NCBI GenBank assembly: GCA_034670405.1
Contig: JAXDDX010000005.1
Span: 4,717,001 to 4,781,000 of the forward strand
Direction of reading: 5' to 3'
Origin: Hoplostethus atlanticus
Lineage: Eukaryota > Chordata > Actinopteri > Trachichthyiformes > Trachichthyidae
Length of the DNA stretch: 64,000 nucleotides
Below are positions 2,753 to 35,100 of this stretch, in pieces. Under the pieces are notes generated by a model, which saw only the letters and a program-made list of their open reading frames with translations, made no database searches and was not told where the DNA came from. Numbering within the stretch: the stretch's first letter is position 1; each line of letters starts with the position of its first letter. The position numbers and the translations under genes were made by a program.

Positions 2753-4906
2753 AATAATAATATGTGTTTGCAAAATTTCAGTGAACAAAAAAGCAATAAC
2801 AGCGTGTCTCCTGTTTCCGATCCATCCATCTCTGTCGCTGAACTGAACTATGCGCCGTCATTTTAATTCAGTCAATCAACAGTCAAAAGTATATAGTGAA
2901 TCAAATCGCCATGACTTACTGCATCAACAGTCTGAAGGGAACACTATCAAAGTAAAGGCTCAGTTTGATCTGATTTCACTTCATTCTTCACAGTGAAAAA
3001 GGACACGTGTGATACAGTGAACAAACGACACACTCAGCCTGTCTTCACTGTCTACAATCGCAAAAGAAAAAACCTGTATGAGGACATCACGCATGAATGG
3101 GAAAGTCATTTTACACCGGCTTAGGTTACAGGAACTGAGATTTGCCTTCTTAACCCAGTAAAGTAGCCCCGGTTGTGGGTCGATGCATGTCATAACCGGG
3201 TTAGAACAAACCATACTTACGAGAAACCTGTCAGACTCACACAGCATCATGGGTACTGTTTTGCCAGCAAAAAAACATGGCAGTCAGCAGTAAGCTAGCT
3301 ATGATTTGACTTCATTTGAAAATGTGTGATATATGTTTGTGTATATTTGACCCCAGACGGTAACACAAGAAAGCGATACTTAAAACATGTCTGTGGAAGA
3401 TGGAAGAGACTATAACAATAACTTGACTTGTTCTGTCAAAACACATTTGTCAATTCATTGCAAAGTAATGTTCTCACTTTCTTTTTTAAAGCTTTAGCAA
3501 ATGGGAGTTTTCGCCAGATTGCTGTCGCATGTTGCCTACAGCAGGAACAACTTGACCCGCTAACCTGCCCGCTATTAGACGTGCCAGACGATCGACCCTT
3601 GCAGAAGTCATTCCCCAACTTTTGTAAATGAGATGATCCTCCATCCAGCTGCTGCAGTGTAAAGGTGCAGATCCCCGATACCTTCTTGCATCTGTTTACT
3701 TGAGAAAGAGGTGGGAGTGAAGGAAAAAAAAAAAAAAACCTACACCTTTGATGCGATATTTGTTTGGAAGAGTGTGAAAGATGAGCACAGCCAGGGTACT
3801 TCGTATTGATTAAGCCCGGTTTGATTGCGGTGTATATAAGTTTTAATTAATCTTTTGGGTAATCAAAATGGCAGCGATATTCCAGTCCGGCAGCAGACAT
3901 TTGGGGCCAATCTGAAGCGCTATCGATTCCCAACCTTTGCCTTTTTTCCTCTAAAGAGCCACTTTTGCCGATGGAGGCTGAGACTGACCTTTCAGTCCAG
4001 TCAACACACCCAAACAAATCATCTTCTCTTTTTATCTGTAATTTATAGGCCCACACACACACACACTCATTCACACTCACTGTTTCTCTCCGGCGCACAT
4101 AAAACCGGTGCATTGTCAGTTACATCGAAAACCTTTCCTAAGGACTTTTGGTGTGCTCTGATCTCTGACAGTCTTTGGAAAAAGATTTGAAGTATTTGTC
4201 TAAAAATGACAAATTTCATGACATTTTAAGTCGCTACTATTCAAACGATTTGCCAAATCCCACTAGATGTATTCTAATATATAGCATATGCATTCACTTG
4301 TGTTCAGGTACATTATTTCTGCTGGGTTGAAACAAGAGCGTGTAATTTTTGGTAAGACAGGATGTGTTCTTTAGATGTGTCGAGGCTTAGTTTGCAGTCA
4401 ACAGCATTTACTGTTCTGTAGACAGTGCCGCTATCTCTACGTAGCCAATGTGCTTGATTTAGTTTTTTCATACGTTGTGGAGAGGCGCAGCCCACACCAT
4501 GATTAAAGCAGCCCAGCTGAAATCTCATATAAAAGATAAGAGTAATAGTAGATTAAAGAAAACACATCTTTACATGATATCTCTCTGTATTCTGTTCCTC
4601 TCTCTTCAGTCTTTCTCCCATTTTTTTGCTCCTACTAGGTCATAGGATTCTGATGCTCAAGCTTTTTTATTTTAATTTTAACCCCTTCTGGATTAACTAC
4701 TACATTCAGTAAAATCACTACATATTCCTTACTTGCTCACAGTAATTATAGTGCAGTCAGTCAGATGGTACTAAACATTACTTTCTTTACTCTCTAAGTA
4801 TTTACCAAGTAAATAAATATAAGACTAGTAAATAACCAGGTTTTTGCTGCTGTAACTAAGTAGGTAAACACTTAAATATTACAGATGACTTACCTAAAAG
4901 TTACAG
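2753..4906. other. Intergenic, no gene seen
   Basis: No coding exon or repeat recognised. The opposing open frames at 3847-4190 are shadows of each other, and one passes through a short CA microsatellite at about 4053-4065. Confidence 0.5.
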
Positions 4907-5536
4907 GATGGTTTAGGATGGCAACAGTATGGTTCAGGATGTGAGCAGGATGGTTTAGGATGGCAACAGTATGGTTCAGGATGTGAGCAGGATGATTTAG
5001 GATGTGAGTAGGCTGGTTTAGGGTGGTAACACAATGGTTTAGGATGTGAACAGGATGATTTAGGATGTGGACAGGATAGTTTAGGATGTAAACATTGTGG
5101 TTTAGAATGTAAAAAGGATAGTTTAGGATCTAAAAAGGATAGTTTAGGATGTAAACATTGTGGTTTAGGATGTGAACAGGATGGTTTAGGATGGTAACAG
5201 AATGGTTTAGGATGTAAACAGCATGGTTTAGGATGGTAACAGAATGGTTTAGGATGTGAACAGGATTGTTTAGGGTGGTGACAGAATGGTTTAGGATGTA
5301 AACAGCATGGTTTAGGATGGTAACAGAATGGTTTAGGATGTGAACAGGATTGTTTAGGGTGGTGACAGAATGGTTCACGATGTGAACAGGATTGTTTAGG
5401 GTGGTGACAGAATGGTTCAGGATGTGAACAGGATTGTTTAGGGTGGTGACAGAATGGTTCAGGATGTGGACATTGTGGTTTAGGATGGTAACAGGATGGT
5501 TTAGGATGTGAACAGGATGGTTTAGGATGTGACTGG
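4907..5536. repeat. 21-bp minisatellite, 30 units, with higher-order structure
   Basis: Exactly 30 tandem units of 21 bp were read by eye, consensus 'gatggtttaggatgtgaaca' plus G. No unit breaks the 21-bp register. Units alternate between two types (TGTGAACAG and TGGTAACAG endings), giving a 42-bp dimer, and the four-unit block 5201-5284 is repeated without change at 5285-5368 (84-bp higher-order unit). Because 21 is divisible by three, frames stay open: the minus strand reads a 7-residue repeat (ILNHSVT-like) at 5130-5378. This is most likely not a protein. Confidence 0.95.
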
Positions 5537-6006
5537 TCAGATCATAGAATTAAGTATCCTTATAAATGATATGTTAAGAACCTGGTATCATGGGAACAAA
5601 AAATGCTTCCTTTTACAGTCCAGTTTCAGTTGCCTATTCAATAAATTGGAATGCTTTAATTAATTTACTTAATTTACTTACTATCTTTGCAGAGCACAAA
5701 TGCTGCCAATTTTAAAGGTTATGGTGAGAATCTGGTACCAACTACCATGGGAACAAATAATGATTTTGTTTACAGTCTCGTTTCACTTTAGTTTTTGGGA
5801 AAGGTTTGAAGAGTTTATGCCAGGTCACTATTGATATAATTGCTAGAACTAGATAGAAACCATCTGATAGTTTCTGTGATAAGTCTAATAAACCTTCCAA
5901 GTGGGTAGAGCCATGAAGAATTACTATGTAAGAAAAACTAATTTATAGGAAAATATGGCCTTTATTCTTAGAATTAGAACACAATTAAACTATTAACAAT
6001 ATAACC
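5537..6006. other. Intergenic with a weak local duplication
   Basis: Two degenerate copies of a stretch containing 'catgggaacaaa' and 'acagtc..gtttca' occur at about 5580-5630 and 5730-5792. No gene seen. Confidence 0.45.
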
Positions 6007-24614: not shown

Positions 24615-24631
24615 ACTTATAACGAGAGTCA

Positions 24632-27430
24632 ATGGGCAAAGATTTTTGCGCCCCAGGCCGGAGAGTTCAAGCCCACCGTCCACCTCTGCCCAGCATCCTT
24701 CTTGCTAACGTCCAGTCTCTGGATAATAAGTTGGATGATGTTAGGGCGAGGATTAGATTCCAACGGGACATGAGGGATTGTAACGTCTTTTGTCTGACGG
24801 AAACATGGCTGACCCCGCTGGTGCCGGATCGAGTCATATGCCCAACCGAGTCCTTCTCTGTTTTCCGTGCGGATAGAACGGAAGAGTCTGGCAAATCTAA
24901 GGGTGGAGGGGTTTGCTTCATGACCAACAACAAGTGGTGCAACCCCAAGGACATTAAGACTCTTTCTCGTTCCTGCTCGTCGAACCTGGAACATCTGACT
25001 ATCTCATGCCGTCCATTCTACCTTCCCCGGGAGTTCAGCGGGGTCATCACCACAGCCGTCTACATACCACCACAAGCGGACACCGACGTAGCACTATCGG
25101 ACCTACATGATGTGTTATGTCGGCATCAGAACAAGCATCCCGACGCGGCTATGGTGGTGGCTGGGGACTTTAATAGGGCGAACCTAAAAAAAGTCATGCC
25201 GAACTTTCACCAGCACATTACGTGTGCTACCAGAGGGGAAAGAACGTTGGACCACTGCTATACGCCGTTCAAGAGAGGCTACAAGGCTGTCTCTCTCCCT
25301 CCGTTCGGCAAATCAGACCATGCCGCCATTTTCCTGCTACCGGAGTATAAACAAAGGATAGCACGGGAAGCGGTAGTGACGAGGGACGTAAAGCGGTGGT
25401 CTGACCAATCAGAGGCTGAGCTACAGGACGCTCTGCGTGACGTCGACTGGGACATGTTCCAATCCAGTTCCAGGGACGTCAGCGAGTTTACGGAAGTAGT
25501 AACGAGCTTCATAGCAACGCTAGTGGACACCATCGTCCCCACGGTGAAAGTTAGGTCCTTTCCTAACCAGAAACCGTGGGTTGATAAATCCATCCGCGAC
25601 GCTTTGAACGCCCGCACTGCTGCCTATAACTCCGGTCTTGTATCCGGCAACATGGACGAGCACAAGGCAGCGTCCTATGGACTGAGAAGGGCGGTGAAGG
25701 AGGCCAAGAGGAGGTACAGAGACAGAGTGGAGTCACAGATGGAGCAGCGCGACACCAGACGCCTATGGCAGGGGCTACGGACTATAACGGACTACCAGGG
25801 CAGACCCCCCGCAATTGTGAGTGCCGACGCATCCCTAGCGGAGGACCTGAACTCATTCTATGCACGGTTTGAGGCTAGCAACAACAGCGCTAGCTCGCCG
25901 GCTAACAACATCACCGTTAGCGCAGCCGGAGTGAGTTCTACCGCTGGGGATGAACACACACTCTCTGTGACCGAGCACAGTGTGAGGAGGGCTCTGACGA
26001 GGGTGAACACCAGGAAAGCTGCTGGTCCGGATGGCATATCTGGGCGAGTACTGAAGACCTGTGCTAATCAGCTAGCTCCAGTGTTCACCACTATATTCAA
26101 CATCTCCCTGGCTGAGTCTGTGGTCCCCGCCTGCTTCAAGAGATCCACTATTGTCCCTGTGCCCAAGAATGCTTCTCCAGCATGCTTGAATGACTACCGA
26201 CCGGTGGCCCTCACCTCGGTGGTCATGAAATGCTTCGAGAGGCTGATAAAGGACTACATCTGCGCCTTCCTCCCTTGCTCCATGGACCCGCTGCAGTTTG
26301 CTTATCGTCCCAACAGATCCACGGATGATGCTGTCTCCCAGGTACTGCACACCACACTCTCTCATCTGGACAGCCGGAAGGGGGGCTATGTGAGACTGCT
26401 GTTCATTGACTATAGTTCAGCTTTCAATACCATAGTCCCCACCAGACTGGCTGGCAAGCTGATTGAGCTGGGACTGAACACCCCCCTGTGTGCCTGGATC
26501 CTGGACTTCCTGACCGCCAGGCCCCAGGTGGTCAGGGTGGGCAGACACACCTCCAACCCCCTCACCCTGAACACAGGATCCCCCCAGGGTTGCGTCCTCA
26601 GCCCCCTACTGTACTCCCTGTACACACATGACTGTGTGGCCAGGTTCAGCTCCAACACCATCATTAAGTTTGCGGATGACACAGTGGTGGTGGGCCTGAT
26701 CTCCGACAACGACGAGAAGGCCTACCTGGAGGAAGTTGCTGATCTGTCACTCTGGTGCCAGGACAACAGCCTCTTCCTGAATGTCACCAAAACTAAGGAG
26801 CTGATTGTGGACTTTAGGAGGACACAACAACAGAGGACGTACTCACCACTGGGGATTAATGGGAATACTGTGGAGAGGGTGAGCAGGTATAAATACCTGG
26901 GAGTCCACATCACCGAAGATCTCACATGGTCCACACACACTGACACTCTGGTGAGAAAGGCGAGGCAGCGCCTTTACCACCTCAGGCAACTGAGGAAATT
27001 TAAAGTCTCCCGGAGGATCCTTCAGTCCTTCTACTCTGGAGCTGTAGAGAGCATCCTGACAGGAAGCATCACTGCCTGGTTTGGCAGCAGCTCCGCTCAG
27101 GACAGGAAGGCTCTGCAGAGAGTAGTGCGTTCGGCTGAGCGCACTATTGGAACTACACTCCCCACCCTGCAGGACTTGTACACCAGGAGGTGCAGAACCA
27201 GAGCCTGCAGGATCATGAAGGATCCTCACCACCCCAACAACGGACTGTTTCAGCTGCTGCGGTCAGGCAAGCGCCTCCGTAGTCACGCTGCCAAAACAGA
27301 GAGACTGAGACGGAGTTTCTTTCCTCAGGCCATCAGGACTGTGAACTCTGACCTCACCAGGGCCCCCACCAAGACACACACACTGCCCCTCTTATGCACA
27401 CACACACACTTAGGTAAAGACTACACATAA
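24632..27430 (+). CDS. LINE ORF: APE endonuclease and reverse transcriptase, 932 aa
   Basis: The protein nicks target DNA and copies its own RNA at the nick. The apurinic-like endonuclease fills residues 20-235: LANVQSL near 24, LTETWL near 56, VYIPP near 145, AGDFN near 177, TLDHCYT near 205 and GKSDHAA near 226, so every catalytic block is present. The reverse transcriptase covers about 440-780: [39 protein letters not shown] near 591 (domain A), [16 protein letters not shown] near 649 (B), FADD at about 680-683 (C) and YKYLGVHI (E). No frameshift or stop interrupts it. A TAA lies four codons before the ATG at 24632, and the first residues may derive from flanking hAT sequence if the LINE is 5'-truncated. 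This is a mobile-element gene, not a host gene. Confidence 0.9.
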
Positions 27431-30459: not shown

Positions 30460-30716
30460 TGACTAGACATCACACTCTCATTCCCCTTTCACATTCATTC
30501 ACCCATTACCATTCTTTAATTCTGTATACTGGTACCATTCATCCATTCGCTCTGCTATTTATAAGTTGTTGTTTTTTTAGTACTTAGTTTGTTAGTACTT
30601 TGTTTTTTTGTATTTTTAGTTTTTTGTATTTCGTAACTTGCCTTGTATTTTGTACATTCTTGTTGATACTGTTATGCTGCTGCAACCCCAGAATTTCCCC
30701 CCGCGGATCAATAAAG

Positions 30717-30760
<44 letters not shown>

Positions 30761-30765
30761 CAGAA
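30460..30765 (+). mobile_element. LINE 3' end, 5'-truncated, (GTCT)n tail
   Basis: The same 3' UTR family as 7237-7620: 'tactgttatgctgc', 'aaccccagaatttcc', 'cggatcaataaagt', then about ten GTCT repeats at 30717-30761. Only the 3' UTR is left. The tail unit differs from the ATCT of the other copy. Confidence 0.7.
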
Positions 30766-30788
30766 TGTAAATAATCTGTCAATACCAC

Positions 30789-31345
30789 TGTGGCAGGGTG
30801 CCACATAACCGGGGTCCTTGACAGACAGAGACATAGGCAGGGGAGAGTTAATGGGCCCGCAGGGCCGTTTTATTGTCCACACAATCCCGGCAACAATATT
30901 ACCCACGGCCCGGGTTGACGGCAGCGCGCCGTCGGCGCCGTCTCCCTCCGCCGGCGCCCTCCTTTGGTCCCGGTGGGCCAGCCGCGGAGCCCCAAGGCTG
31001 CCCCAGCCTGCCGGGCTTCCAGGGGCATCCTGCCCCAACCCCGACTGGTCAGCCCTTGCAGGTGGCTCCCGACTGCGTCCTCCGCGGACCTCCGCCGGAC
31101 GCCGCGGCAGGAGACGGCCCGCTCCCGCTCCGTCGCTCCCGCTGGTGCTGGCCCCCGATCTCTCCGCATCCACGCGCCAGCCTCTCACACTGGCGCGTCC
31201 CTCTCGCTCACACATTCACCCACACGTTAAAAAGGCCCCAGCTGCAATGCAGCTGGAACCGGATCCAGGAAAGAAGTAGTCCACTAACTCACCTCTCTCC
31301 TGGATCCAATTAAGCCTCCCCCCACCCTCCCTCCAGTCCGCCACA
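30789..31345 (-). repeat. 3' LTR of the miniature element
   Basis: 557 bp, TG...CA in the minus sense. A TTTTTAA-like TATA box lies near 31227-31234, and an AATAAA polyadenylation signal (minus strand) at 30873-30868, ordered as expected for U3-R-U5. The terminal 'gtggcagggtgccac' can form a small hairpin at 30790-30804. It differs from the partner LTR by one C/T change near 31069 and by lacking 15 bp after 'cagctgcaat'. Confidence 0.9.
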
Positions 31346-31611
31346 TACCCCCACCGCCAAACTGAGGCTGGGGAGCCGTCCGGCCGAAGCCAACTCCCCC
31401 CCTCCCTCCCCCCCATTTGAGAGCGAGGAAGAAGGCGATAAGGTCCCGCCCGGAACGGCTCGGAGTCGGTGGGGCCAGGTGATGCTGCGAGGTGGTGAGG
31501 GAGGCGCCTTGCCATCACCGGCCGTCCCCTGGCAGCTGGTGTCGCCACGACGGCACGGCGATGGCGATGTTCTCCCGTCTCTGCCTGTCGATTCCCGGTC
31601 AGGGAACCAAA
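31346..31611 (-). other. Internal region of the miniature LTR element
   Basis: 266 bp without a recognisable protein domain. In the minus sense it begins two bases after the LTR with the primer-binding site and ends with a G-rich stretch. A purine tract on the minus strand at 31388-31413 may be the polypurine tract, although it sits about 45 bp from the LTR. A packaging signal could lie here but cannot be seen. Confidence 0.7.
31588..31609 (-). promoter_or_regulatory. Primer-binding site for tRNA-Glu
   Basis: The plus strand reads TCGATTCCCGGTCAGGGA then ACCA, identical to my recollection of the 3' end of vertebrate tRNA-Glu plus the added CCA. The complement therefore primes minus-strand DNA synthesis. 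Its place two bases from the LTR edge is canonical. Confidence 0.85.
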
Positions 31612-32183
31612 TGTGGCAGGGTGCCACATAACCGGGGTCCTTGACAGACAGAGACATAGGCAGGGGAGAGTTAATGGGCCCGCAGGGCCGTTTTATTGTC
31701 CACACAATCCCGGCAACAATATTACCCACGGCCCGGGTTGACGGCAGCGCGCCGTCGGCGCCGTCTCCCTCCGCCGGCGCCCTCCTTTGGTCCCGGTGGG
31801 CCAGCCGCGGAGCCCCAAGGCTGCCCCAGCCTGCCGGGCTTCCAGGGGCATCCTGCCCCAACCCCGACTGGTCAGCCCTTGCAGGTGGCTCCTGACTGCG
31901 TCCTCCGCGGACCTCCGCCGGACGCCGCGGCAGGAGACGGCCCGCTCCCGCTCCGTCGCTCCCGCTGGTGCTGGCCCCCGATCTCTCCGCATCCACGCGC
32001 CAGCCTCTCACACTGGCGCGTCCCTCTCGCTCACACATTCACCCACACGTTAAAAAGGCCCCAGCTGCAATCAGTCCCAACTGGCTGCAGCTGGAACCGG
32101 ATCCAGGAAAGAAGTAGTCCACTAACTCACCTCTCTCCTGGATCCAATTAAGCCTCCCCCCACCCTCCCTCCAGTCCGCCACA
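31612..32183 (-). repeat. 5' LTR of the miniature element
   Basis: 572 bp, otherwise nearly identical to 30789-31345. A TATA-like TTTTTAA (minus) lies near 32050-32057 and AATAAA (minus) at 31696-31691. It includes 15 bp not found in the other LTR, forming 'cccaactggctgcagctgg' near 32077-32095. Confidence 0.9.
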
Positions 32184-32188
32184 ACCAC

Positions 32189-35100
32189 TTATCTCATTTC
32201 ACAGAAATAAAATAAATTGTAAATAAACCTGTCATTATATTGGCTCCAATAACTCTTTAAGACATTTTGATACTTTTCATGGCCTTAAATTTAGATTTAG
32301 ATTAATTTAATTGAAGACTGATGTTTTAAGGACCCTAGGACAGCGTAATCACTATTTCTACAGGCTGTGGGTAATCCTTCTACGACAGCTAGGTTGTAAT
32401 AACAATATTTCAGCATACACCTGTCAAAGTTCCCGTTTAGAGTGGTTATATGACAGCGGAGTACAAAACTGGTTCCTGTTCCGTTTGTTAGTCTGGTAAA
32501 TATAACCCACTGGAAACAAGAAGGCATGAGAAGTCAGTCAGATGGGATGAACTTCCTTTACAACCTCGGTTTGTGTCATGTTGCTTGTTGAGAATGCCCT
32601 AAAGGCATTGACATCAAGCATGTTTGGTGCAGTTCATTCAAACTCTGCAGTGTTTACTCCTTTTGTTCGGTCCTCTTCCAGGTGAACTGCGTTGCAGTTC
32701 GTTAGGAATGAGAATGCACCCCGAACCAACAACAGAAAATTACCCCACAATGCAAAGTTTTATGGGTATAAGAAGATGAATGTTGGCAGTTCTTTGTGCT
32801 TTGAAAGTCCTGCATATCAAAATGAACTGATTTCCTCATTTGTTCTCAGCTGGTATGAAAACCAGAAAAGGTCAATTACAGCAAAGGGCACAGACAAGTC
32901 CATCATACTTAGCTAAAGTTACAGGGACTGGAATCGGATTGGTTTTGACCAAAAACCTCTAACCTGGCGGGATGACAGGTTACCAAAACTCTGTCCAATA
33001 AACGAGCTACTTGTGAGTCATGTGACTTTCGTTTACAAGCCCTGGTTCACTTGTAATTGGGCAGTGTGAACCCAAACAAACAAACCTTTCCACTATGGTT
33101 CCGGCCAAAGAACTGTAGGTTTGATTGCCCCATATTATACACACATATCTCACAATTTTTGTTTTGCATGTTAGCTAGCTGACTGCCTTTGTACAGAATA
33201 GCATGCTCTTTATTAACATAATTGTTTGCTAGGAGTTATAACTTCTTGGAAGAAATTGTTGCCTGACTTGAGAACAGTTTGAGGAGAGTTTTTTCACCTC
33301 ATCAGGAATTCCGCAACGTTTCATTGGATTGTGCAATGTATTTGTCAGCAAATCACATCTTGCCTATGACCCCAAATAACTATGACAGAGAGCATGTAGG
33401 GCTGTATATCACTCCTTGGCCCGCTAAGTAAGACAATGACATGTTCAAAATACAACAATGAAATACCATATAATTACTACATTCTAAGTAAGGCTATAAA
33501 GAGGGACTTCATCCTGATGTTCATGAAACCAATATTTTCTTTACAGTGTGTATGGGGGCATTATCACCTTGGAGCATCATAAGGGAACAGTGTTTGCACC
33601 CTAAGGTGCTGCTGGTCCTTTGTAATTGGGATTTAGTTACTTCAAAGTTAAAGTCCTTTTTATTGTTTGCATTTTTTAGTGCACCCCCTGTATATGACAG
33701 TGAAACAATAATCATCATCATGCTCTGAAAACATTGCTTGTGGAGTCTCACATGGCTCTTTGTACATATGCTTGCTTTTGGTGACGTTATCAGGTATATC
33801 TTCCACTAAAAAACATTGATGTGAACAGTTTTTTGTGTGTCTGTCTGATTTAGACAGCAGATGTTGAGGCACTGTAGCAGGGTTAAACAAAATTAACTTC
33901 TATCGTATGATGATGAGGGGCCTTTCAAGTAATTTCAATGGTTAAAATCTTACAAACTGCATGTTTATAGAATAAAATACACAAAAAAGCCCCAGCAACC
34001 TTTAACCTAGAGTCATCTGTTGGCTAAAATCCTTGGATAGAGCCCTTTTAGCTGTTCCAAGTTAAGTGTAATTGGACCATTAGGGCCTCTTTGGTGAAAA
34101 ATAAGGCAAAGTATGCAAAATAAGGATAATCTTTTCTTTTACTTCTTAAAGCATTCTTTTACAGGCTTTTATGTAATGTTTGCATGGAAGTGCGAACACC
34201 TGCTTTTCTTCTTTTATGCTGCTTCTGCCCGTTTTTGTAGCATATTCTGCTTGTAATTAGAGTAGGTTCCAAGGTTCCTTGCAAAAAGTGTTTTGGAAAA
34301 TGATTACATAATTTATTGATTATTCAATTCTTTAATTACTTACAATTATCAGCCCAAACTGTTACTCAGATAATGCATGGTAATATTGAAATCTTGAAAA
34401 TGCCATTTTTGGAAGATATCATGGGAAAAAAGTGTAGAAGCAAACAATGCTTTCAAGTTTATCTTAATATGCACACTGTTGTGGGAAATTAGTATATTGT
34501 CGCAAACTCATATTACGAAACCACACAGTGTGAAAGGATTTATTTTGGATTACACAGTTGCCATCACCCTTAAATAATTCCGATGTTGGAGAGCTTTTAA
34601 TAATTCTTGGCATTGATTTCTGAGGCAGCTTTGAATCAGGGCTTAATGTTTTGAGGGAATAACAATTCATTTGCGGGGCTGATTGATGTCAGGAAAACTC
34701 ATTTTGCCCCACAGGAAAAAAGGAAACATCTCTGACACTTTCAACAGCAACCTACATTTTCCAGTGGGTTATAATCCAATTAGCAGAACATCGTTTGTAG
34801 TGGGTCTAGGGAAGATGGATAAATCTCTCAATGTCTTAGAGACTTACATTATCTAGAGCTATTGAAAATGACAACGATGTAAAAAAAAAAAATGCAACAG
34901 TTCCTCAGCCGTGTTTTTGCTTGTTTATGCTTCCATGCACTCACTGACAGAGCGAGGAGGCTGTAAAAGTCAGAAGTAATAAGTTACAAGTTAAGTTTAG
35001 AGTTTTGACGATCTTGCCTGCGGCGCCATCAATAACCATGACCATCACTGCCGAGAGATGTAGATTTACTGCTACTGTGATCTATAGCTCTACCTCTATA

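What the first reader, a model, noticed from the sequence alone, without database searches (positions are those of the whole stretch)
30789..32183. Complete, very young miniature LTR retrotransposon with no genes
Seen: 557/572-bp direct repeats, TG...CA ends, perfect ACCAC target duplication and only 266 bp of interior with a primer-binding site. Known: TRIMs are non-autonomous LTR elements best described in plants, where LTRs are usually shorter; vertebrate examples are little described as far as I recall. Inference: a GC-rich fish TRIM-like family moved in trans, possibly still active.
Basis: partly seen in the sequence, partly recalled or inferred. Interest (0 to 1): 0.85.

Follow-up and report, generated by a model that had tools for sequence, protein, structure and literature searches.

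The report
Gene-less fish-type retrotransposon riding Gmr1-like elements
This is a real, recently inserted copy of a gene-less mobile DNA family that seems to borrow the machinery of a longer element in the same genome while starting its copying from a different transfer RNA, which at least one earlier study assumed such riders could not do.

Summary
Window 30789-32183 is a complete LTR-interior-LTR insertion (572/557 bp LTRs, 266 bp interior, 5-bp duplication ACCAC) on the minus strand. It is not a one-off: of 17 complete separate copies I could read, 16 have perfect 5-bp duplications, with LTR divergence 0-1.8%. The genome holds 72 LTR/primer-site junctions of this type and 633 LTR ends (most probably solo LTRs), plus subfamilies.

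A probable driver is a Ty3/gypsy element with a SCAN-domain gag (Gmr1-like). It shares the polypurine tract, LTR start and 5-bp duplications; at least 20 of 103 matches to its pol piece lie in long open frames.

The unexpected part is the primer. The short family uses tRNA-Glu, the driver a tRNA-Pro-type site. One integrated chimera, flanked by GTAAG, joins a short-element LTR, a whole tRNA-Glu copy and driver gag/PBS/U5. Three further copies carry partial tRNA-Glu. These look like fossils of co-packaging and of copying through the primer tRNA.

The element works like a TRIM but exceeds the quoted TRIM size limits; vertebrate TRIMs were already published. Verdict: new variant of a known kind. 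Main gap: about 40 tRNA-Glu sites remain unread, so an unseen Glu-primed driver is not excluded.

The parts
30784..30788 (.). target-site duplication ACCAC, left copy
   Evidence: as GTGGT in element orientation
30789..31345 (-). 3' LTR (557 bp), lacks 15 bp inside a hairpin that the 5' LTR keeps
30869..30874 (-). AATAAA polyadenylation signal in the 3' LTR (and 31692-31697 in the 5' LTR)
   Evidence: sequence; motif meaning is established knowledge, not tested
31346..31358 (-). polypurine tract GGCGGTGGGGGTA directly before the 3' LTR
   Evidence: sequence; same stretch precedes driver-type 3' LTRs
31346..31413 (-). 3' part of the interior related to the end of the Gmr1-like driver (82.6% over 69 aligned positions)
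   Evidence: L096
31346..31611 (-). interior, 266 bp, no conserved ORF
31577..31589 (-). 3' arm of the 13-bp stem that encloses the PBS (5' arm 31643-31655 in U5)
   Evidence: coordinates counted by eye
31588..31609 (-). primer-binding site, 22 nt complementary to tRNA-Glu positions 55-76
   Evidence: position numbering recalled
31612..31628 (-). U5 end hairpin TGTGGCA-ccc-TGCCACA
31612..32183 (-). 5' LTR (572 bp)
32050..32056 (-). TTTTTAA, possible TATA-like box in the 5' LTR (inference, not tested)
   Evidence: sequence only
32184..32188 (.). target-site duplication ACCAC, right copy

Best explanation
A young copy of a non-autonomous, TRIM-like LTR retrotransposon family. Shown: complete LTRs, PBS, PPT, 5-bp duplications, many copies, no genes, and a long relative in the same genome with the same PPT and LTR start. 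Inferred: LTR-driven RNA is packaged in particles made by a Gmr1-like Ty3/gypsy element, primed by tRNA-Glu (not by the driver's tRNA-Pro-type primer), reverse transcribed, and inserted by the driver's integrase, which recognises the shared TGTGGC...CA ends. Plus-strand synthesis sometimes runs past the usual stop at A58 of the primer tRNA, leaving tRNA sequence, inverted LTRs and element-element chimeras as integrated fossils.
For: Family: 29 of 47 matches, the window included, are full length or nearly so at 92-100% (40 of 1957 candidates scored); 16 of 17 complete separate copies have perfect 5-bp duplications. Primer: 72 LTR/tRNA-Glu-PBS junctions. Of 56 short-type PPT/LTR junctions among the 100 listed of 228, 50 have a tRNA-Glu PBS 77-296 bp upstream, 48 of them at 234-296. 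Driver: SCAN, zinc knuckle, protease then integrase zinc domain in L090, RNase H just before the PPT in L096 (SCAN is from L096); PPT and LTR start shared; 5-bp duplication GTGTT in L096; at least 20 of 103 matches of its pol piece lie in open frames of 1,300 codons or more. Co-packaging: the C152 chimera with GTAAG on both sides. Read-through: 4 of 15 genome matches to the tRNA-Glu T-arm/acceptor lie in short elements, and the C267 case has GGGTC on both sides.
Against: The PBS differs from the driver's, and most of the LTR is not clearly alignable to it. About 41 tRNA-Glu sites were neither read nor paired: 5 of 72 first-type, 23 of 36 second-type, 11 other sites among the 100 listed of 116 exact 18-mers, and about 2 of the 16 unlisted. 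Six of 56 short-type PPT junctions have no such PBS within 12 kb. The co-packaging chimera is a single locus, and the exact place where it passes from short-element U3 to driver sequence was not found by my script (only an overlap). No expression or particle data. Structure support is modest: 2 compensatory changes, 26 of 500 shuffles reach the covariation score.
Confidence: 0.78

Rival explanations
1. The driver is an unseen or extinct autonomous element that itself uses tRNA-Glu; the Gmr1-like element is only a relative.
For: About 41 tRNA-Glu sites are unread and unpaired; earlier authors expect driver and rider to share the PBS (PMC4558846, passages).
Against: None of the Glu-PBS sites that I read holds gag-pol in sense orientation, and 50 of 56 short-type PPT junctions pair with a Glu PBS at 77-296 bp, none at a gag-pol distance. 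Of 36 driver-type gag starts (one of them in the chimera), 33 lie on contigs covered by the listed exact Glu sites and none coincides with one. The integrated chimera joins the family to the Pro-primed element.
Confidence: 0.17
2. A simple internal deletion of one full gag-pol element (one-off or small family).
For: The 3' end of the interior is related to the driver's 3' end; two fetched copies (L024, L081) are themselves deletion products.
Against: Different PBS, U5 and most of the LTR; interiors of 234-296 bp at 48 of 56 short-type PPT junctions; subfamilies with LTR parts about 71-82% alike have equally short interiors where read.
Confidence: 0.03
3. The tRNA-Glu segments came from DNA recombination with genomic tRNA genes and not from copying the primer.
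For: Other genomic matches to the tRNA-Glu arm exist, with 7 of 15 on C153; the junctions have short microhomologies.
Against: In all 4 cases the tRNA sequence lies directly at the LTR end as the primer would, to different extents (33, 33, about 48 and the full 72 nt); 2 composites are flanked as whole units by 5-bp duplications. The flanks of the other two were not checked.
Confidence: 0.08

Closest known systems
TRIM (terminal-repeat retrotransposon in miniature), incl. ta-TRIM and biv-TRIM
   Same: Two LTRs, PBS, PPT, no genes, target duplications, solo LTRs, tandem LTR-interior arrays
   Different: 1.39-1.42 kb with 552-579 bp LTRs in 17 copies, against under 1 kb and 100-250 bp in the definition quoted in PMC6934838 (passages); the driver candidate uses another primer, whereas PMC4558846 expects the same PBS (passages)
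Helenus (TRIMs with tRNA-like LTRs; coelacanth, sturgeon, zebrafish and others)
   Same: Gene-less vertebrate LTR elements with PBS and PPT; PBS diversity noted (PMC10886601: abstract, part of Results, passages)
   Different: No tRNA-like sequence found in the LTR; 5-bp and not 4-bp duplications
Gmr1-like Ty3/gypsy elements (SCAN-domain gag; PMC4131045 and PMC3406341, passages)
   Same: PPT, LTR start TGTGGC(A/G)GACTGG, 5-bp duplication in the one copy checked; U5 end palindrome of similar shape (by eye)
   Different: Carries gag-pol in an interior of about 4.3 kb (C14 copy, from positions), with a tRNA-Pro-type PBS
Primer over-extension sequence of lentiviruses and spumaviruses (PMC13191261, passages)
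   Same: Template complementarity to the primer tRNA past A58, up to Psi55
   Different: Here in a retrotransposon with tRNA-Glu; also full-length and partial tRNA copies left in the genome

Membership tests
TRIM | LTR-PBS-short interior-PPT-LTR without coding capacity | tested here: met
TRIM | under 1000 bp, terminal repeats 100-250 bp | tested here: not met
   1395 bp, LTRs 557/572; limits as quoted in PMC6934838
TRIM | multi-copy family with target duplications | tested here: met
TRIM | mobilised in trans by an autonomous partner | tested here: inconclusive
   partner inferred from shared ends and one chimera; no mobilisation test
Helenus | tRNA-like sequence in the LTR | tested here: not met
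   ARAGORN none in window; Rfam at E up to 1 gave no tRNA match in 30600-32400
Helenus (animal) | 4-bp target duplication | tested here: not met
   5 bp in 16 of 17
Gmr1-like Ty3/gypsy (for the driver) | SCAN-type gag | tested here: met
   Pfam SCAN 2.1e-17 in L096
Gmr1-like Ty3/gypsy (for the driver) | integrase upstream of reverse transcriptase (order recalled) | tested here: inconclusive
   protease then integrase zinc domain in L090 (rve match partial and below its cut-off), RNase H next to the 3' LTR in L096, itself a deleted copy; RT not read, no tree built

The most novel reading that the evidence does not exclude
A primer-mismatched hitchhiker. The short family is packaged by a tRNA-Pro-primed Gmr1-like element but carries its own tRNA-Glu primer site, so packaging of one cognate tRNA does not limit what a driver can mobilise. 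Because tRNA-Glu is often copied past A58, the main subfamily has acquired a 22-nt site ending exactly at Psi55, a retrotransposon counterpart of the lentiviral over-extension sequence, and failures of this step remain as tRNA-containing chimeras.
Probability: 0.43. Interest if true: 0.75.

Novelty: new variant of a known kind. Interest (0 to 1): 0.6.

Why it matters
How gene-less LTR elements choose a driver is open. A published argument (PMC4558846, passages) holds that the driver should share the PBS, because cognate tRNAs are packaged. Here the best-supported driver has a different primer site, and a chimera ties both RNAs and tRNA-Glu to one cDNA. If confirmed, driver searches should rest on LTR ends, PPT and packaging, not on the PBS, and genomes can be mined for primer-tRNA fossils that record which tRNA was used and how far it was copied.

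Tried and rejected
Rejected: a coding role for the interior. The 242-aa frame of the window copy is not kept: the longest ORFs in 17 copies are 124-242 aa at different positions, 300 single-base shuffles give a 95% point of 196 aa, and there was no Pfam match. Rejected: Helenus membership. Rejected as a known RNA gene: the only Rfam hits were mir-214, far below its threshold. Rejected: L001/L002 and L006/L007 being duplicated loci because they share duplications (GTGGT, GCATC); the flanks do not match beyond a few bases. Weak result: covariation of the PBS stem. No result: host species not identified; Rfam over the whole window gave nothing; the U3/driver junction of the chimera was not placed. 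The TATA-like box and the R boundaries were not tested.

Rows dropped or partial. One search took 38 loci: some repeat others, 12 gave no complete LTR pair by my rule, and the 3 pairs of the C61 array were left out of the 17. One search was given 41 of 72 TT-spacer PBS sites, 15 of 36 G-spacer sites, 25 driver places (24 of the 41 rows, one) and the 100 listed of 228 PPT junctions; unpaired were 7, 5 and 2. There, 34 TT-spacer sites gave 236-283 bp and 10 G-spacer sites 236-297 bp, with one of 92. Of 23 paired driver places, 18 lay at 4,321-4,462 bp (from the hit's start, inside the LTR); the other five (1,617; 1,989; 2,897; 7,347; 11,739) are deleted, interrupted or mispaired.

Full report
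Observation. The structure is as described: LTRs of 557 and 572 bp, 266 bp of interior, TG...CA ends, ACCAC on both sides. The LTRs differ by one transition and one 15-bp loss inside a small hairpin. The PBS (TGGTTCCCTGACCGGGAATCGA on the minus strand, 31588-31609), the PPT (31346-31358) and AATAAA on the minus strand fix the orientation: the element reads from 32183 to 30789. With recalled vertebrate rates of 2.5e-9 to 1e-8 per site per year, K = 0.0018 gives roughly 0.1-0.4 million years; the rate for this species is unknown.

Family. A whole-element search of the host genome (632.8 Mb, 1161 contigs) returned 47 matches. Of these, 29 (the window included) are full length or nearly so at 92-100% identity: query 1-1395 in 28, 1-1377 in one. 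Only 40 of 1957 first-look candidates were scored, so this is a lower bound. Among 17 complete, separate copies that I could read, 16 have perfect 5-bp duplications, with 14 different sequences; K runs from 0 to 0.018, median 0.0018, and 5 of 17 have no substitution between the LTRs. The C61 copy is a tandem of four LTRs and three interiors with CAGGG on both outer sides. Of 30 loci fetched with the LTR alone, 8 look like solo LTRs, and 6 of these 8 have matching 5-bp flanks; those loci were the best matches, so 8 of 30 is no estimate of the proportion. A U5-end pattern has 633 matches, against 72-75 LTR/PBS junctions of the main type and 36 of a second type. Most LTR ends are thus outside complete elements, probably as solo LTRs (inference).

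No genes. I fetched 50 of the 72 junction sites. In none did I see gag-pol in sense orientation in the 1-1.5 kb held. Most have the short interior; L024, L035, L073, L074, L079, L081 and L084 are deleted or rearranged. Of the other 22, 16 appear as complete or partial short elements and one paired; 5 are unread. Related subfamilies, with LTR parts about 71-82% alike to the window's, have equally short interiors where read, and either the same PBS with a TT spacer or an 18-nt version with a G spacer. Of the 36 G-spacer sites, 13 were read or paired and 23 were not.

Driver. One junction site (C152, L084/L089) contained a gag fragment of a gypsy element. Searching with it gave 41 matches at 89-100% (40 of 1388 candidates scored). 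These elements start TGTGGCAGACTGG (found in 7 of 9 non-chimeric loci with up to 2 mismatches), end ..TTGCTACA, and have the PBS TGGGGGCTCGTCCGGGAT (10 of 10 loci, the chimera included, up to 2 mismatches), which I recall as tRNA-Pro type. Pfam finds SCAN, a zinc knuckle, protease and then an integrase zinc domain (the rve match is partial and below its cut-off), and RNase H next to the PPT. This fits the arrangement that I recall for Gmr1-like elements; SCAN in Gmr elements is in PMC4131045 and PMC3406341 (passages). The stretch before the 3' LTR of L096 is 82.6% identical to the end of our interior, and the PPT and LTR start are shared. A PPT/LTR pattern has 228 matches; of the 100 listed, 40 are driver type, 53 the two main short-element types and 7 other, 3 of which have the short-type tag. 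Of the 56 with the short-type tag, 50 have a tRNA-Glu PBS 77-296 bp upstream (48 at 234-296) and 6 have none within 12 kb. Of 23 paired driver places, 18 have the 3' LTR 4.32-4.46 kb from the start of the hit. L096 shows a 5-bp duplication GTGTT. At least 20 of 103 matches to the pol piece lie in open frames of 1,300 codons or more. I name none.

Primer mismatch. The short family's PBS matches tRNA-Glu(CTC). This is not only inferred from complementarity: in C152 the PBS runs on into a whole tRNA-Glu(CTC) copy recognised by ARAGORN. Of 36 driver-type gag starts in a pattern that allows either primer (one of them in the chimera), the 8 whose letters were shown are all Pro type; 33 of the 36 lie on contigs covered by the listed exact Glu sites and none coincides with one. 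Against this, of the 100 exact Glu 18-mers listed (116 in all), 11 belong to no site that I could classify; of the 16 unlisted, 14 would be known sites by my count. PMC4558846 states the expectation that a driver should share the PBS (passage). Helenus authors discuss primer changes together with, or by change of, the driver (PMC10886601, passages). In my literature searches (listings only) I saw no title or abstract start describing a gene-less LTR element with a driver of another primer, or a TRIM linked to a Gmr1-like element; most subscription papers are not in that library.

Fossils of reverse transcription. The C152 composite reads: short-element LTR (662 bp) - PBS - complete tRNA-Glu - driver gag fragment inverted - driver PBS and U5/R inverted - short-element U3 inverted. 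It has GTAAG on both outer sides. It therefore most likely inserted as one cDNA with two U3 ends. The simplest path (inference) is plus-strand strong-stop DNA that copied the whole primer, switched at a CCTGG microhomology onto driver RNA in gag, copied to its 5' region, and then transferred to short-element RNA. C267 has 33 nt of tRNA joined to inverted U3, and GGGTC on both sides. C326 has the same 33-nt junction, so these two may not be independent. C274 has about 48 nt of tRNA and then re-enters the interior at GCGCC. C83 is an LTR-PBS-inverted LTR palindrome with GATAT on both sides; C619 has the same right flank and may be its allele. In all, 4 of 15 genome matches to the tRNA-Glu arm are in short elements. 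PMC13191261 (passages) reports that unmodified primer is copied to its 5' end, that minor HIV-1 products stop at Psi55, and that lentiviruses carry an over-extension sequence for that case. The 22-nt PBS of the main subfamily ends exactly at position 55, whereas the second subfamily's ends at 59 (tRNA numbering recalled).

RNA structure. The U5-PBS-leader (191 nt) folds with z = -6.05. A 13-bp stem around the PBS and a 7-bp U5 hairpin are kept in 98.8% of cells over 12 sequences, against 27-51% when slid, but with only 2 compensatory changes and 26 of 500 shuffles as good. I treat this as suggestive.

Verdict. The element is ordinary in kind (TRIM-like) but carries unusually direct evidence on driver and primer.

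Noticed in passing
L089 (host C152:723361-727300), composite at L089:777-2558: Integrated chimera of short-element LTR, complete tRNA-Glu(CTC) and inverted Gmr1-like gag/PBS/U5, flanked by GTAAG on both sides.
   Followed up: yes
L035 (host C83:493014-496043), positions 845-2160: LTR-PBS-inverted LTR palindrome with GATAT on both sides; host C619 shows the same right flank.
   Followed up: partly
host C61:1434224-1437292 (L008, L025-L027): Tandem array of four LTRs and three interiors with CAGGG on both outer sides.
   Followed up: partly
window 24623-27430, + strand: 935-codon open frame with Pfam RVT_1 and a weak endonuclease match: a non-LTR retrotransposon frame without stops; a frame with shared words appears beside the C267 composite (by eye).
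   Followed up: partly
L101 (host C52:490900-492150), 647-793: A short-element LTR that contains a 147-bp piece 90% identical to the start of the Gmr1-like LTR, a possible second LTR-level chimera.
   Followed up: no
window 4894-5541, - strand: Tandem repeat open in two frames (SCSHPKP-like units), probably a minisatellite.
   Followed up: no
host C153:59644-185389: 7 of the 15 tRNA-Glu arm matches, probably a tRNA gene cluster.
   Followed up: no
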